Source: Kordia aestuariivivens (lineage in GTDB: Bacteria > Bacteroidota > Bacteroidia > Flavobacteriales > Flavobacteriaceae). Taken from it: a DNA stretch of 64,000 nucleotides. The notes beneath the pieces were generated by a model. It had not been told where the DNA came from and ran no database searches. It worked only from the letters and a program-made list of their open reading frames with translations. Below are positions 47,055 through 53,676 of this stretch, in pieces (the stretch's first letter is position 1; each line of letters opens with the position of its first letter). The stretch spans positions 124,001 to 188,000 of the forward strand of contig NZ_JACGWS010000001.1 of assembly GCF_014397005.1 (NCBI RefSeq). The letters are read 5' to 3'. The position numbers and the translations under genes are program-made.

Positions 47055-47382
47055 TTAGTGAAACTCAACTTTGCGCAGTCCGAAGGACGCACGCAAAGTT
47101 GCAAGTTGAACTAATCCCGCTGGATAGCAGGATCATGCACAATGTATTTCTACTTCTTAATATGTATTACTTTATCTCTTTTGAATTCAAATTTTTATAA
47201 ATCCGAAGGACGCACGCAAAGTTGCAAGTTGAACTAATCCCGCTGAATAGCAGAATCATGCATAATGTATTTCTACTTCTTAATATATATTCCTTTATCT
47301 CTTTTGAATTCAAATTTTTATAAATCCGAAGGATGCACGCAAAGTTGCAAGTTGAACTAATCCCGCTGGATAGCGGGATCTT
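47055..47382. repeat. Structured repeat with 123-bp tandem triplication (copy C)
   Basis: The block TCCGAAGGA...GTTGCAAGTTGAACTAATCCCGCT begins at 47079, 47202 and 47325, an exact 123-bp period. The first copy also has the upstream partner strand AACTCAACTTTGCG. Each unit ends with an imperfect CCCGCT-GGAT-AGCGGG hairpin. It fills most of the 547-base gap between tRNA-Asp and the DUF456 gene; no coding frame is seen. Confidence 0.75.
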
Positions 47383-47440: not shown

Positions 47441-47941
47441 CTAAAAAATAACACCTTTATATTCCCAAAAGTCACTCAAAAAAAAGCCGAAATAAACAAT
47501 AGCGACAATAAACTTCAAGAGCGTAGAGAATAAGAAGCCTAAAAACGAGCCAAAAGCGGCTTTAAAGGCACTATCTACATCTTTGTTGGCAAATGCTAGT
47601 TCTCCGATCAACGCGCCTAAAAACGGTCCGATAATAATTCCAAAAGGTCCTAAAAATAACAATCCGAGAATTAAACCGATTGTAGTTCCGTAAATTCCAT
47701 ATTTGCTGCCGCCAAAACGTTTGGTACCAATGGCAGGAATGATATAATCCATCACAAAAACTAGGACAGCGATAAAAAGTGTAATGCCTAAAAATGTCCA
47801 GTTATTTGGAATTGCTTCTGTAAGATATAGAAACAACAAGCCGAACCAACTTGTAACTGGTCCGGGAATAATAGGTAAAAAGCTTCCAATGATTCCGAGT
47901 AGCATCAACAAAAAGCCAAGTATGGTAAAGAAAATATCCAT
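47441..47941 (-). CDS. DUF456 membrane protein
   Basis: A 166-residue, Gly-rich, multi-helix membrane protein (L-P-I-I-P-G-P-V-T-S-W, K-R-F-G-G-S-K-Y-G-I-Y-G, G-P-F-L-G-A-L-I-G-E). It matches the DUF456 pattern of repeated Gly-zipper helices. Function unknown. Divergent from blaI, whose operators begin about 50 bases from its start. Confidence 0.85.
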   Translation of the reverse strand: MDIFFTILGFLLMLLGIIGSFLPIIPGPVTSWFGLLFLYLTEAIPNNWTFLGITLFIAVLVFVMDYIIPAIGTKRFGGSKYGIYGTTIGLILGLLFLGPFGIIIGPFLGALIGELAFANKDVDSAFKAAFGSFLGFLFSTLLKFIVAIVYFGFFLSDFWEYKGVIF

Positions 47942-47992: not shown

Positions 47993-48057
47993 AACTAATA
48001 AGTTAGTTTAAACTAAAAATTTAGTTATATTTGTTTTATAGAACTAAGAGTTTAGTT
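47993..48057 (+). promoter_or_regulatory. Triple operator and promoter of the BlaI operon
   Basis: Three copies of AACTAA-N4-TTAGTT lie at 47993-48008, 48011-48026 and 48042-48057. The -7 box TATATTTG is at 48026-48033, between the second and third copies. BlaI-family dimers bind such dyads and repress; this is probably the autoregulatory site. The first dyad could also affect the divergent DUF456 gene. Confidence 0.75.
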
Positions 48058-48077: not shown

Positions 48078-48446
48078 ATGAAGCAATTAACGAAAGCAGA
48101 AGAGGAAATTATGCAAATTCTGTGGCAACTAGAAAAAGCAAATGTAAAAACCATCATTGAAAACTTTGCAGGTTCAAAACCTGCGTACAATACGGTTTCT
48201 ACCATTGTTCGAATTCTAGAAAGCAAAGGATTTGTAGGATATGAAAAAGTAGGGAAAGGACATATATACTTTCCGCTGTTAGCGCAATCAGAATATAGCA
48301 ATCAATCCATTTCTAAATTGGTGAATGGTTATTTTCAAGGATCTTTTAAAAGTATGGTATCGTTTTTTATGGAAAAAAATGACATCAGTACTTCGGAATT
48401 GGAAGACATACTTCAAGAAATCGAAAAAAATAACAAGAAATCATGA
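48078..48446 (+). CDS. BlaI/MecI/CopY-family repressor
   Basis: A 122-residue winged-helix repressor (L-T-K-A-E-E-E-I-M-Q-I-L-W, N-T-V-S-T-I-V-R-I-L-E-S-K-G-F) with a C-terminal dimerisation helix region that family members lose on proteolysis. Overlaps the M56 peptidase gene by four bases (ATGA), the standard sensor pair arrangement. Confidence 0.92.
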   Translation: MKQLTKAEEEIMQILWQLEKANVKTIIENFAGSKPAYNTVSTIVRILESKGFVGYEKVGKGHIYFPLLAQSEYSNQSISKLVNGYFQGSFKSMVSFFMEKNDISTSELEDILQEIEKNNKKS

Positions 48447-49936
48447 TTTTATATTTTGTTCAAGTCATTTCGTTTCAGCTACTATTTTTAGTAAGCTACG
48501 ATCTGTTTCTAAAAAAAGAAACATTTTTCAATTGGAATAGAGCATATTTAATCTGTTCGTCATTACTTTCTTTTATAATACCTTTTATTAAGATAGAAAG
48601 TTTTCAAAAAGCCATTCCACAAGAATATATTGTACTGTTGCCAGAAATTATACTCACGCCCGAAAAAGCAGTCGAAATTATTGCGCCTTCATGGAATTGG
48701 TATCTCATTATTGGAATCGCGATTAGTAGCATCTTATTTATATATAAAATTTCGCAGTTAGTCCGATTGAAATTGAAAGGAATTATTGTACATCAAGGAA
48801 GTTATAAAATCATCAAAATGCCAAACAGCACGATGGCTTTTTCCATCTTTAATTATGTATTTATCGGAGATGATATTGAAGAAGAAAAACTAGAAGACAT
48901 TCTTTCGCACGAATTGGTTCACATTCGTGAAAAACACTCACTAGACTTGTTGTATTTTGAACTCTTACGCATCTTGTTTTGGTTCAATCCGTTAGTATAT
49001 ATTTATCAAAAACGAATCTCCGAATTGCATGAGTTTATTGCTGATGCAACAGTTGTAAAGCATAAAAATAAATCCGATTACTATGAAAAATTGTTGACTG
49101 AAGTCTTTCAAACACAGCATTTTTCGTTCACCAATCAATTCTTTAAACATTCATTAATCAAAAAACGAATCAGTATGTTAACAAAACAAAAATCCCGAGA
49201 AATTTTAAAATTAAAGTACTTAGTGTTAATTCCAGTATTATTAATCACGCTATTGTATACCTCGTGTAATAATAGTACAGAAACGGATATTGACCCAAAA
49301 GCATCCATTGAGCAATTGGAAGCCAATGTCAAAACAACGTTGGATAATTTCAATACGTACAGTAAAAGTCTGAAAGGCATCGAAATATTGAGTGAAAAAC
49401 AATATGCAGAACTAGGCGACTTAATGCAAGTTTTCCTTGAAGCGCAACGCGCATTGAGTATTGCAAAAGGAAAAGAACCTGAAGCTTTATCAAAACTAGA
49501 AAGAAGTTATGAAGACTATCTAAAAGAAAGAAAGGCAAATATAGCCGAAACGAGTTCGTATGAAACTCTAGAAAAAGATGCTCTTGAATTCAAAATGATT
49601 GACAAAGCACCAACCTTTCCAGGATGTGAAGGAGAAGCTACTTTAGAAGCTTTGAAAGATTGTTTTTTACAAAATGTTGCTAAACATGTCAATAAAAATT
49701 TCAATTTAAAATTAGCAGAAGAATTAGACTTAAAAGGTGTGCAAAAAATGTTTGCTAAATTTGTTGTAGATAAAAATGGAGAAATTAAAGACATGCAAAT
49801 AAGAGCGCCACATCCTCAATTGAAAATAGAAGTGGAACGTGTATTAAATACGTTGCCAAAACTAACACCCGCCGAAAAAGACGGAAAACCAGTAAGTGTA
49901 AAATACATGTTGCCAATCTCATTTAAAATACAATAA
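48443..49936 (+). CDS. M56 (BlaR1-type) membrane metallopeptidase with TonB-like C-terminus
   Basis: A 497-residue protein. N-terminal transmembrane helices and a cytoplasmic/membrane zinc peptidase carry H-E-L-V-H near 155-159 and a downstream E-L-H-E-F-I-A-D-A (zinc ligand Glu). A further helix follows (L-V-L-I-P-V-L-L-I-T). The periplasmic end is a TonB-C-like domain (about 390-497, ending L-P-I-S-F-K-I-Q) in place of a penicillin-binding sensor. It presumably cleaves the BlaI repressor on an envelope signal. No beta-lactamase is nearby. Confidence 0.88.
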   Translation: MILYFVQVISFQLLFLVSYDLFLKKETFFNWNRAYLICSSLLSFIIPFIKIESFQKAIPQEYIVLLPEIILTPEKAVEIIAPSWNWYLIIGIAISSILFIYKISQLVRLKLKGIIVHQGSYKIIKMPNSTMAFSIFNYVFIGDDIEEEKLEDILSHELVHIREKHSLDLLYFELLRILFWFNPLVYIYQKRISELHEFIADATVVKHKNKSDYYEKLLTEVFQTQHFSFTNQFFKHSLIKKRISMLTKQKSREILKLKYLVLIPVLLITLLYTSCNNSTETDIDPKASIEQLEANVKTTLDNFNTYSKSLKGIEILSEKQYAELGDLMQVFLEAQRALSIAKGKEPEALSKLERSYEDYLKERKANIAETSSYETLEKDALEFKMIDKAPTFPGCEGEATLEALKDCFLQNVAKHVNKNFNLKLAEELDLKGVQKMFAKFVVDKNGEIKDMQIRAPHPQLKIEVERVLNTLPKLTPAEKDGKPVSVKYMLPISFKIQ

Positions 49937-49944
49937 TTTTTAGA

Positions 49945-51087
49945 ATGAATAGATTACTAATAGTATTCATTTCACTAACATTCATAAGCAAAGTCGGAGC
50001 GCAATCTTCGACTTTTGTTGTTGCGGATAGTTTATACCGTGTCGGAAACTTTTCAAAAGCAATAAAAGCTTATGAAAAGCTGGAAAATAGCAGTTATGCA
50101 AACACGCAAATTGCAAAGTCATACAAAGCCTTAGGAAACTCCAAAAAAGCGATTGTCAACTATGAAAAAGCCTTAGCTGTCGATTCTCTAAACACCCTTG
50201 TTTTATATGACTATGGGAAGTTATTGTTTTCGACAGGAAAACCTCAAAAATCCTTGACTATTTTTGAAAAGTTAAAAGCAAAAGATACGCTCAATCCAAA
50301 TTTTCATTATCAAATTGGCTTGGCGAAAGAAGCATTACAAAAAGAAGATTTCCTAAGCGCATACAAAACCGTTTTTCAACTCGATTCACAACATCAAAAA
50401 AGTATTTACAAGTTGATTGTGTATCACTTGAAGCATAAAGAATTTGAAAAAGCGGCAGCATTCATCAACGTAGGATTAAAAAATAATGCGGATGATGCAA
50501 AAGTTATCGGTTTCAATGCGCAATTGCTCTACGCATTAAAGCAACACAGAAAAGCATTGTTTTGGTTTGAAAAATTGATCGACCGTAAAAAAGCAACGCA
50601 ATATGTATATGAAAAAGCAGCTTTTTCGGCGTATCGTGTGGGGAAAATTCTAAAATCGATTGCCTATTATGAAGAAGCTTTAAAGCGCGATCAAGGAAAC
50701 TATTTTTACCATTCGCAATTGGCAAAATTATACTATCAAGATGGAGTTGTCAAAAAAGCAGAACATCATGCTTCACAATCAATTCTTGCAAAAATGATTG
50801 ATACTTCAGGCGATTATTACATTCTCGGGTTGGTTGCTTTTGATCGAAAAGAGCATGGTAGCGCCATGAAACTATTCAGTAGAGCATTGGAGGAAAATCC
50901 AGACTATGAAGCGGCGCAATTTCAATTGGCGTTATGTGCGGATAGTTACTATTCGGATTTAAAAGCAACCTTGAAAACGTACGAGCGTTTTTTAGAAAAA
51001 TTTCCTGAAGCAAAGCTCGATAAGCAGAAAATTATCCGAACGCGCATTCGTGAACTCAAAGCGGAAATACACTTAAAATCAGAATAA
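49945..51087 (+). CDS. Exported tetratricopeptide-repeat protein
   Basis: A 380-residue protein with a signal peptide (M-N-R-L-L-I-V-F-I-S to V-G-A-Q) and about eight TPRs (for example A-L-G-N-S-K-K-A-I-V-N-Y-E-K-A-L). It follows the M56 gene by eight bases, so it belongs to that operon. Its last six codons (H-L-K-S-E-stop) are the 18-bp sequence repeated at 53121, the left edge of the NACHT insertion. Confidence 0.88.
   Translation: MNRLLIVFISLTFISKVGAQSSTFVVADSLYRVGNFSKAIKAYEKLENSSYANTQIAKSYKALGNSKKAIVNYEKALAVDSLNTLVLYDYGKLLFSTGKPQKSLTIFEKLKAKDTLNPNFHYQIGLAKEALQKEDFLSAYKTVFQLDSQHQKSIYKLIVYHLKHKEFEKAAAFINVGLKNNADDAKVIGFNAQLLYALKQHRKALFWFEKLIDRKKATQYVYEKAAFSAYRVGKILKSIAYYEEALKRDQGNYFYHSQLAKLYYQDGVVKKAEHHASQSILAKMIDTSGDYYILGLVAFDRKEHGSAMKLFSRALEENPDYEAAQFQLALCADSYYSDLKATLKTYERFLEKFPEAKLDKQKIIRTRIRELKAEIHLKSE
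51070..51087 (+). repeat. Left 18-bp direct repeat of the NACHT insertion
   Basis: CACTTAAAATCAGAATAA, the 3' end and stop of the TPR gene. Identical to 53121-53138; the bases on either side differ between copies. Confidence 0.9.
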
Positions 51088-51193: not shown

Positions 51194-53101
51194 ATGCTTG
51201 ATATTATTTACGAAAAATTAATTACTACCGGGATTAAATTAATTAATCAAGAAATAAAAAGGTCAGATTTTAGTCCCAAATATTCACCGAAGGAATTACA
51301 AAAAGCAATTTTTAAGCATACTACATATATTAAAAATGAAACAAAACTTATTTCGTATAGAAAGACTAAAAAGAGTAAAAAAATAAGTGATGTATATATA
51401 GACATCGACATCAGTGTGAAGCCAAGAAGTGAATCCGTTTATGGGGCTTCACGAGAAAAATTTATTATTAATGAAATTATAAAGCACAAGGAAGAAGAGC
51501 TTGAATTTGGTCAATTGACACATATCATTTTAATGGGTGGTCCAGGTGCAGGAAAAACAACTACAGTAGGTCGTATTTGCAGACGTTTTTTAGGAGAGGA
51601 GCATAGTTTTGAGTTCAAACTTCCTATTTTAATCAAGTTGAGAGATATTCCTCAAGAGCTCACGATATATGGAAAGCTTGTAGATATTTTAGGACTAGAA
51701 TTTTATAGTAAGGATAAAACTTCAATTTTTAAGGATAAGATGCTCTCTAGAAAAATTGTCAATGCGTATTTGAATAGTTTAAATGCTATTCTGGTTATTG
51801 ACGGTTTGGATGAAGTAGAACCCAAAAAACTTAGTTTTTATAATGAAGAAATTAAAGACTTATTCAACTATTTAGATAATACGTTGGTTATTTTAACTTC
51901 TAGAAGTGCATCATTAAATTATTCATTTCCAAATTCTGAAAAGTATGAATTATGCGATTTAAGTGATGATCAAGTTGTTCAGTTTGTAAATAATTGGTTC
52001 AGTGAAGAAAAACATGAAGCACAAAATTTCTTAAGTAGCTTTAAAGAATCTCAATTTTATATTCATAATCTAAAAATACAACCATTAACTCTTGCTCACA
52101 TTTGTGGAATGTTCGAATTCACAGGGAAACTTTACGATAAGCCAAGAAATTTGTACAAAAGATTACTTAAATTATTGATTGAAGATTGGGATGCAAATAG
52201 GCAAATAAAAGAAAGGTCATTATATTTTGAACGGAAACAACAAAATACACAGTATTCAAAATTTGAAACAGACGACAAGATCAAGTTTTTGTCGCACTTT
52301 GCTTTTGATCTTAGCGTTAAATATGCAACAAGATCATACACTACTGAAGAATTTGAGGAATCCTATTTAAGAATTTATGAGAACCATAATTTACCGAGAA
52401 ATCAATGTGAAAAAGTTGTCAAAGAAATTGAAGCACATAATGGAATTATTATTAAATCGAGTATAGATACTTTTCTATTTTATCATAAAGTAATACAAGA
52501 AATTTTAGCAGCTAAGCACATTACAGGCTTGAAAAAGGTGCCAATTAATAAAATAAGCCATTCAAACATCTCAAATGAATTAGCAATTGCAGTTTGTATT
52601 GCTTCAGATTCAACAGATTGGTACATAGATTTTATATTTAATGAATTAGGTAAAATGAATCTGACAACTACATTTGTTTCAGAATTTTTAACAAGATTAA
52701 TTGATGAACAGCCTATTTTTAAAAGGACAAAAGTAATTCCTTTAAGCTTTATTTATATCTATGATTTATTATTAAGTAAAGGTGTCATAAAAATGTATGA
52801 TCGTACTGAGCATGAGGTTTTTAGAGACTTAAATACACAAGAGTTTAATAAGAAATTTAATGAAATTATTAGAAAGGCAAAAACTAATAATACAATTTAT
52901 AATTGTTTTTTAAACTTTGATAGATTTTTTCAAGCGAATTATATTTCTGGAGGTAGACTTTGTAAAGTAAGTATAAAGGCAGATGCTTATGAAGCATTTA
53001 TCCTAAATGAGCAAGAAGACTATATAAATTTTGATGATATAGAAGCCATGTTCCCTTTGTTAATTACTAGAGACCTATACAAAGAATACTTTGAAAAATA
53101 A
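51194..53101 (+). CDS. NACHT-domain NTPase (bacterial NLR-like, likely immune protein)
   Basis: A 635-residue STAND NTPase. A short N-terminal region (1-~95, rich in Lys, with no effector family I recognise) precedes the NACHT core: Walker A G-G-P-G-A-G-K-T-T near 114-122 and Walker B L-V-I-D-G-L-D-E-V-E near 199. Next come T-S-R-S sensor and winged-helix regions, and a C-terminal helical part lacking clear LRR, TPR or WD repeats. Bacterial NACHT proteins include phage-defence proteins. The insertion context supports an accessory role; the effector and trigger are unknown. Confidence 0.88.
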   Translation: MLDIIYEKLITTGIKLINQEIKRSDFSPKYSPKELQKAIFKHTTYIKNETKLISYRKTKKSKKISDVYIDIDISVKPRSESVYGASREKFIINEIIKHKEEELEFGQLTHIILMGGPGAGKTTTVGRICRRFLGEEHSFEFKLPILIKLRDIPQELTIYGKLVDILGLEFYSKDKTSIFKDKMLSRKIVNAYLNSLNAILVIDGLDEVEPKKLSFYNEEIKDLFNYLDNTLVILTSRSASLNYSFPNSEKYELCDLSDDQVVQFVNNWFSEEKHEAQNFLSSFKESQFYIHNLKIQPLTLAHICGMFEFTGKLYDKPRNLYKRLLKLLIEDWDANRQIKERSLYFERKQQNTQYSKFETDDKIKFLSHFAFDLSVKYATRSYTTEEFEESYLRIYENHNLPRNQCEKVVKEIEAHNGIIIKSSIDTFLFYHKVIQEILAAKHITGLKKVPINKISHSNISNELAIAVCIASDSTDWYIDFIFNELGKMNLTTTFVSEFLTRLIDEQPIFKRTKVIPLSFIYIYDLLLSKGVIKMYDRTEHEVFRDLNTQEFNKKFNEIIRKAKTNNTIYNCFLNFDRFFQANYISGGRLCKVSIKADAYEAFILNEQEDYINFDDIEAMFPLLITRDLYKEYFEK

Positions 53102-53193: not shown

Positions 53194-53676
53194 GTGATGA
53201 AACAACTGTGGAAATATTGTCTAGTATTTTTTGTGTGTGTTTCTTGTGACTTGATTAATAGTTCTATTGTAAAAGAAGAAACTATTGTAGCGCAAGAAAA
53301 ACAGACCATTGATTTGGATACAGTTACCGAATTTCCATCATTCACAAGTTGTGATCATTTAGAAAGTGAAGCACAAAAAAACTGTTTCTTTCAAGCCTTA
53401 ACGGATCACATTTACGAGCGTTTATCACAAAATGAGCTTATGGTTTCTAAAGCCATTCACGATACCATTCAAGTAGAATTACACATCGATTCCATAGGAA
53501 TTATTAAGGTTGCCAACATTCAAAAAAAAGCATTTACAGCCAAGCAATTACCGAGCTTAGATAGTTTGATTCGTGCAAGCATCAATAGTTTACCTAAAGC
53601 ATCTCCTGCGAACAAAAGAGGCATTCCTGTAGCTACAAAATTCATGCTGCCAATTATATTACATGTTGAAGAGTGA
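53194..53676 (+). CDS. Lipoprotein with TonB-C-like domain, paralogous to the M56 C-terminus
   Basis: A 160-residue protein with a lipobox (V-C-V-S-C, Cys18). The rest aligns by eye with the C-terminal domain of the M56 protein at 48443: F-P-x-x-x-x-C, a second Cys in N-C-F-F / D-C-F-L, S-L-P-K-A-S-P-A-x-K-x-G-x-P-V, and K-F-M-L-P-I. It was probably the fourth gene of the sensor operon before the NACHT insertion. A role as a decoy or envelope partner of the sensor is inference. Confidence 0.75.
   Translation: MMKQLWKYCLVFFVCVSCDLINSSIVKEETIVAQEKQTIDLDTVTEFPSFTSCDHLESEAQKNCFFQALTDHIYERLSQNELMVSKAIHDTIQVELHIDSIGIIKVANIQKKAFTAKQLPSLDSLIRASINSLPKASPANKRGIPVATKFMLPIILHVEE

What the first reader, a model, noticed from the sequence alone, without database searches (positions are those of the whole stretch)
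47993..48057. Three AACTAA-N4-TTAGTT dyads around the promoter of a BlaI-M56 operon
Same 16-base dyad three times in 65 bases, one on each side of and one touching the TATATTTG box, upstream of a BlaI repressor. The half-site differs from the classical TACA/TGTA of BlaI.
Basis: partly seen in the sequence, partly recalled or inferred. Interest (0 to 1): 0.55.

Follow-up and report, generated by a model that had tools for sequence, protein, structure and literature searches.

The report
Triple operator of a BlaI-type repressor
Three copies of a short palindrome sit on the promoter of a repressor-and-protease operon and look like the docking sites of that repressor; the same arrangement recurs in most sampled relatives that carry this repressor, so this is probably a self-regulating switch with a DNA code slightly different from the textbook one.

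Summary
Confirmed. Three exact AACTAA-N4-TTAGTT dyads lie at 47993-48008, 48011-48026 and 48042-48057, around the TATATTTG box upstream of a BlaI-M56 operon. The 5.46-Mb genome has one further exact copy. Of 35 upstream regions of the window's BlaI group, 33 have at least one ACTA-N6-TAGT dyad and 31 at least two; 29 hold an 18-bp-spaced pair, usually running straight into TATATTTG. Of 60 family genomes, 31 of 33 with this BlaI and 0 of 27 without it hold the 18-bp tandem. In two genomes with extra genes first in the operon, the operator stays ahead of them. I conclude that these are autoregulatory operators of this BlaI repressor; binding is untested. The half-site differs from TACA/TGTA at its inner bases but keeps a common CTA-N6-TAG frame. 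A paralog in the same genome has TCTACAnnTGTAGA, and a published clostridial BlaI has GACTAT half-sites (PMC8457756). So this is a lineage-specific variant of a known kind of operator. The M56 partner carries a TonB_C domain and no recognised penicillin sensor; its signal is unknown.

The parts
47993..48008 (.). Dyad 1 AACTAATAAGTTAGTT; its right arm overlaps the expected -33 region
   Evidence: conserved 18-bp pair in relatives; the -33 placement is inference from spacing
48011..48026 (.). Dyad 2 AACTAAAAATTTAGTT, centre 18 bp from dyad 1, last T shared with the -7 box
48026..48033 (+). TATATTTG, Bacteroidota-type -7 box (consensus TAnnTTTG is recalled, not from a call)
   Evidence: the same octamer follows 17 of 29 conserved pairs
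48042..48057 (.). Dyad 3 AACTAAGAGTTTAGTT, just past the expected transcription start, centre 31 bp from dyad 2
   Evidence: a third dyad 24-36 bp after an 18-bp pair in 13 of 35 group I regions
48078..48446 (+). BlaI/MecI/CopY-type repressor (122 aa, PF03965)
   Evidence: 107.3 bits, cut-off 22.6; MecI structures E 6.6e-14
48443..49936 (+). M56 (BlaR1-type) metalloprotease with HELVH and a TonB_C C-terminal domain
   Evidence: PF05569 55.2 bits; PF03544 40.2 bits; HExxH at residue 156
49945..51087 (+). TPR-repeat protein, frequent third gene of the operon
   Evidence: found in 14 of the 20 group I loci
53194..53676 (+). Small probable lipoprotein (by eye) related to the M56 C-terminal domain; frequent last gene of the locus
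   Evidence: 17 of the 20 loci; 27% identity to the M56 C-terminus, E 1e-13 in a one-against-one comparison; no Pfam family at E 0.001
47441..47941 (-). Divergent DUF456 protein on the other side of the operators
   Evidence: 16 of the 20 loci

Best explanation
The three dyads are autoregulatory operators of the adjacent BlaI-family repressor. One winged-helix dimer binds each AACTAA-N4-TTAGTT. Dimers on the 18-bp-spaced pair cover the -33/-7 core promoter; a dimer on the third site lies over the start of the transcript. Repression is relieved when the co-encoded M56 protease, on an envelope signal, cleaves BlaI. Shown: the sites, their conservation, and their tie to this BlaI group. Inferred: binding, repression, order of occupancy, cleavage and the signal.
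For: Exact clustered dyads. In the window's BlaI group 33 of 35 upstream regions have at least one dyad and 31 of 35 at least two, against 0 of 35 in the first 250 coding bases and 1.5% (at least one) in shuffles. In the two regions without a dyad (L044, L050) the operator lies further up, ahead of inserted first genes, 0.5 and 2.0 kb from BlaI. Pair period 18 bp in 29 regions, linker TTAA in 24 of 29. The 18-bp tandem is in 100 of 199 family genomes, reversed control in 4 of 199; of the first 60, 31 of 33 with the ortholog (60% identity or more) and 0 of 27 without it carry it, Fisher p 5e-15. All five BlaI genes of this genome have CTA-N6-TAG dyads upstream. Precedent: paired inverted repeats upstream of two Clostridium thermocellum blaI genes, by DAP-seq, with EMSA on single-repeat probes (PMC8457756, passages).
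Against: No binding or expression data. 2 of 33 ortholog-bearing genomes lack an exact tandem (G031: one base off; G057: second dyad degenerate). The third dyad follows the pair in only 13 of 35 regions, so its role is uncertain. One genome has the operator between DUF456 and an M56 gene with no BlaI there (L148; its BlaI is at another operator, L149). The match of half-site to recognition helix cannot be separated from descent. The 18-bp pair usually makes a TTAGTTTAAACTAA palindrome across its junction, another possible binding unit.
Confidence: 0.92

Rival explanations
1. The dyads are bound by a different regulator (for example one that controls the divergent DUF456 gene) and BlaI is only a target.
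For: The operators lie in a divergent intergenic region with a frequent DUF456 neighbour (16 of 20 loci); in L148 the operator lies between DUF456 and M56 with no BlaI gene.
Against: The tandem tracks the BlaI ortholog (31 of 33 against 0 of 27); the main BlaI groups each have their own flavour and spacing of the same dyad frame (18, 20, 28/20 bp). Of the five loci without BlaI, four lack DUF456 too.
Confidence: 0.04
2. The unit is the junction palindrome TTAGTTTAAACTAA or a single 34-bp double site rather than separate AACTAA-N4-TTAGTT dyads.
For: Linker TTAA in 24 of 29 pairs, making the junction self-complementary.
Against: Dyad 3 stands alone; other groups keep the N6 dyad with 20- or 28-bp periods; the linker varies (TTGA, TCAA, TAGA, TGAA).
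Confidence: 0.05
3. The repeats work as RNA (hairpin or attenuator) or are a chance feature of AT-rich DNA.
For: Dyad 3 should be transcribed; single exact dyads are not rarer or commoner than a reversed control genome-wide (4 against 5).
Against: Dyads 1 and 2 lie upstream of the expected start. Dyad 3 does not form its own hairpin in the best structure and the fold is unremarkable (z -0.37). Cross-genome conservation excludes chance.
Confidence: 0.01

Closest known systems
BlaI/MecI operators of Staphylococcus (TACA/TGTA)
   Same: Repressor family (PF03965; MecI E 6.6e-14), dyads at the promoter, M56 protease gene next to it; CTA-N6-TAG frame shared with the mec operator as I recall it
   Different: Inner bases A/T instead of C/G; 18-bp period; M56 partner has a TonB_C domain and no recognised penicillin sensor; no beta-lactamase gene among the operon genes named here
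CopY/CopR cop box (RNYKACANNTGTMRNY; PMC7253601, abstract and passages)
   Same: Related repressors, with two operator copies upstream of the operon in pneumococcus
   Different: Window has no TACAnnTGTA and the protein scores 54.2 bits against the CopY_TcrY cut-off of 121.95
Clostridium thermocellum BlaI_1845 and BlaI_0696 (PMC8457756, passages)
   Same: GACTAT and GTCTAT half-sites hold CTAT after a varying outer base; two pairs of inverted repeats per target; small regulons (one and three operons) with self-regulation
   Different: Other inner and outer bases; BlaI_0696 repeats are reported five nucleotides apart (four between the arms here); regulons linked by the authors to a beta-lactam response

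Membership tests
BlaI/MecI/CopY repressor family (PF03965) | Penicillinase_R profile over the curated cut-off | tested here: met
   107.3 bits against 22.6, residues 4-116
BlaI/MecI/CopY repressor family (PF03965) | Binds palindromic operators at its own promoter | tested here: inconclusive
   Conserved dyads tied to the ortholog; no binding assay possible
Classical BlaI/MecI operator | TACA-N2-TGTA core | tested here: not met
   0 matches in the window; inner base A in 95% of group I half-sites
BlaI-type operators as sampled here | Symmetric CTA-N6-TAG frame upstream of the BlaI gene | tested here: met
   All three window sites; 136 of 163 BlaI upstream regions (88 of 94 family, 48 of 69 phylum)
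BlaR1/MecR1 sensor-protease | M56 domain with HExxH | tested here: met
   PF05569 55.2 bits against 31; HELVH at residue 156
BlaR1/MecR1 sensor-protease | Penicillin-binding sensor domain; NCBIfam BlaR1 cut-off | tested here: not met
   Pfam finds only Peptidase_M56 and TonB_C; blaR1_generic 36.4 bits against 400
BlaR1-BlaI proteolytic switch | Cleavage of BlaI at Asn101-Phe102 (S. aureus; PMC9834060, passages) | not testable with these tools
   By the alignment the N-F pair corresponds to F96-F97 here; F97 is kept in 34 of 35 group I proteins. Cleavage unknown

The most novel reading that the evidence does not exclude
The operon is a penicillin-independent proteolytic switch: an M56 protease with a TonB_C-type domain reads the state of the envelope or of TonB-dependent transport and cleaves BlaI. 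Its C-terminal domain may be cut free by a signal peptidase at a lipobox-like site right after the last hydrophobic stretch. BlaI subgroups in one cell are kept apart by a half-site code (AACTAA, AACTAT, TACTAT, TTCTACA) set by recognition-helix residues about 36-41, together with group-specific spacings.
Probability: 0.3. Interest if true: 0.65.

Novelty: new variant of a known kind. Interest (0 to 1): 0.36.

Why it matters
BlaI genes are common in this family (47 of 60 genomes have matches), but my literature searches turned up no defined operator for this group of bacteria. The conserved 34-bp double dyad gives a ready search string, a testable promoter and a route to the unknown signal. 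Five BlaI genes with graded operator variants in one genome are a natural set for studying how paralogous repressors avoid cross-talk.

Tried and rejected
A wider regulon in this genome: the exact tandem of ACTA-N6-TAGT lies only before BlaI genes. The pattern RACTAA-N4-TTAGTY at up to one mismatch has 97 sites (exact ones included) against 245 for the reversed control, no excess. The fourth exact site (C13:19836) overlaps the stop-codon end of a 223-aa ORF and is taken as chance.

Trans targets in other genomes: I looked at 20 loci, picked mostly because they were second or odd sites, so not a random sample. 15 of 20 have BlaI in the locus. One (L148) has the operator before an M56 gene without BlaI. 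Two (L154, L153) have an operator plus TATATTTG or TATATTCG before a probable TPR-like protein and a 762-aa probable lipoprotein (my reading of translations, no family search). Two (L151, L156) have no such box right after the pair and look like chance.

Recognition code: on 68 representatives, helix positions rank high in mutual information with the half-site (38 third for the outermost base, 37 third for the next, 46 first for the inner base), but positions outside the helix such as 77, 62 and 23 rank as high or higher. On a tree built without the helix columns there are too few independent changes for a test. The second base changes twice and Y37 goes with it in the 1 supported pair. For the outermost base, N38 changed with it in only 0.6 of 5 supported pairs on average, which speaks against a simple one-residue code (its output was cut). 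The code stays a hypothesis. One BlaI class (G/AYTTTLK) has no CTA-N6-TAG dyad: 0 of 8 by text search, 0 of 9 by alignment.

Literature: 0 papers; 6 papers; (1 paper, which names BlaI once in a list of regulator families, passage). One search was wasted (its terms matched Paramecium and mecillinam). In PMC12578637 the 3 passages shown hold no BlaI repressor. Most subscription papers are not in the library, so absence from print is not shown.

Full report
What is there. The window holds three exact AACTAA-N4-TTAGTT dyads, centred 18 and 31 bp apart, upstream of a PF03965 repressor and an M56 protease gene. TATATTTG fits the Bacteroidota -7 consensus TAnnTTTG (recalled). Dyad 1 reaches into the expected -33 region, dyad 2 ends on the first base of the -7 box and dyad 3 lies just past the expected start. 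In order-3 Markov copies of the window the cluster never appears (0 of 300). Single exact sites are not rare in the genome (4, reversed control 5), so the evidence is the cluster and its conservation.

Conservation. I took the upstream 250 bases of 94 BlaI genes of the family set (94 of the 104 matches, the window's genome included; 10 were not fetched). They were sorted by best match to the five BlaI proteins of this genome. Group I is the window's: 35 regions, window included, 33 of them at about 60% identity or more and two at 53% and 42%; 33 of 35 have at least one dyad, 31 of 35 two or more, with 29 pairs at 18 bp. Group II: 30 of 34 and 23 of 34, period 20 bp in 23 pairs, half-site mostly AACTAT. 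Group III: 23 of 23 and 22 of 23, half-site mostly TCTACA, periods mostly 28 and 20. The other two paralogs are alone in their groups, with three and two dyads. The first 250 coding bases gave 0 in every group; shuffles gave about 1.5% with at least one in the three large groups. In group I the pair reads AACTAA-N4-TTAGTT-TA-AACTAA-N4-TTAGTT and usually runs into TATATTTG (17 of 29) or TATATTAG (5 of 29). A second species of the same genus keeps all three dyads (sequence printed).

Tie to the repressor. The 18-bp tandem, searched without any protein, occurs in 100 of 199 family genomes and its reversed control in 4 of 199. Among the first 60 genomes, whose BlaI content is known, it is in 31 of 33 with a group I BlaI (60% identity or more) and in 0 of 27 without. 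In two genomes a hydrolase-like plus a SnoaL-like gene, or a SnoaL-like gene alone (my reading of the translations), stand between operator and BlaI; the operator keeps its place ahead of the first gene. In one genome an M56 gene without BlaI has its own operator, beside DUF456 (L148); that genome's BlaI lies behind a second operator (L149).

Locus. In 20 group I loci the order operator, BlaI, M56, TPR protein, small TonB_C-like protein is frequent: M56 20 of 20, 18-bp tandem 19 of 20, small protein 17 of 20, divergent DUF456 16 of 20, TPR 14 of 20 (some loci may be cut by their ends). In the window a NACHT NTPase gene (51194-53101) stands between the TPR gene and the small gene; in the same-genus genome the matches to those two genes lie 62 bases apart (L162).

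How it works. In S. aureus BlaR1 cleaves BlaI at Asn101-Phe102, which lowers occupancy of the operator (PMC9834060, passages). Here the repressor fold family, the M56 HExxH and the phenylalanine at that place are kept, but Pfam finds a TonB_C domain and no penicillin sensor, so beta-lactam sensing is not expected. Repressor dimers on dyads 1 and 2 would block polymerase; dyad 3 probably tightens repression. All of this is inference from anatomy and family knowledge; the signal is unknown.

How different. The classical core TACAnnTGTA is absent. But CTA-N6-TAG is the common frame: 136 of 163 BlaI upstream regions have it symmetrically (88 of 94 family, 48 of 69 phylum; the 69 are those fetched of 113 phylum matches outside the window's genome), with outer and inner bases varying by group. 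The same genome's paralog L009 has TCTACAnnTGTAGA. [quoted passage not shown] So the window is a variant, not a new kind. The apparent match of half-site to recognition helix is suggestive: KPAYNTVST with AACTAA in 34 of 35 rows that have a dyad, 3 more rows having none; A-x-TT-[IV]-AT mostly with TTCTACA or CTCTACA; KVAYTTVMT with TACTAT in 11 of 13. It is confounded by descent, and the tree test does not support it.

Noticed in passing
window 48443-49936, residues near 275; loci L145-L184: A cysteine in a YTSC-type, lipobox-like setting follows the last hydrophobic stretch (judged by eye) of M56: present 117-119 residues after HExxH in 34 of 40 relative frames, one of the 40 being cut by its locus end, and in the window protein; a regex over 41 frames gives 32 lipobox-like, 3 AxA-like, 5 neither, 1 cut. 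Possible signal-peptidase release of the TonB_C domain; signal-peptidase cleavage of the BlaR1 sensor is described in PMC9834060 (passage).
   Followed up: partly
window 51194-53101: NACHT NTPase gene (PF05729; weak PADLOC mad8 match) sits inside an otherwise recurrent operon between the TPR gene and the small TonB_C-like gene; absent there in the same-genus genome (L162).
   Followed up: partly
window 47079-47374: Tandem array of a 123-bp unit, 2.4 copies, 95% matches.
   Followed up: no
L154 3013 and L153 2943: Tandem operators with -7-like boxes before a 635-aa probable TPR-like protein and a 762-aa probable lipoprotein, with no BlaI in the locus: possible trans targets.
   Followed up: partly
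L196, L206, L208, L211, L214, L218, L222, L224: BlaI class with a GYTTTLK recognition helix has no CTA-N6-TAG dyad in the 250 bases upstream; its operator is unknown (list read; counts).
   Followed up: no
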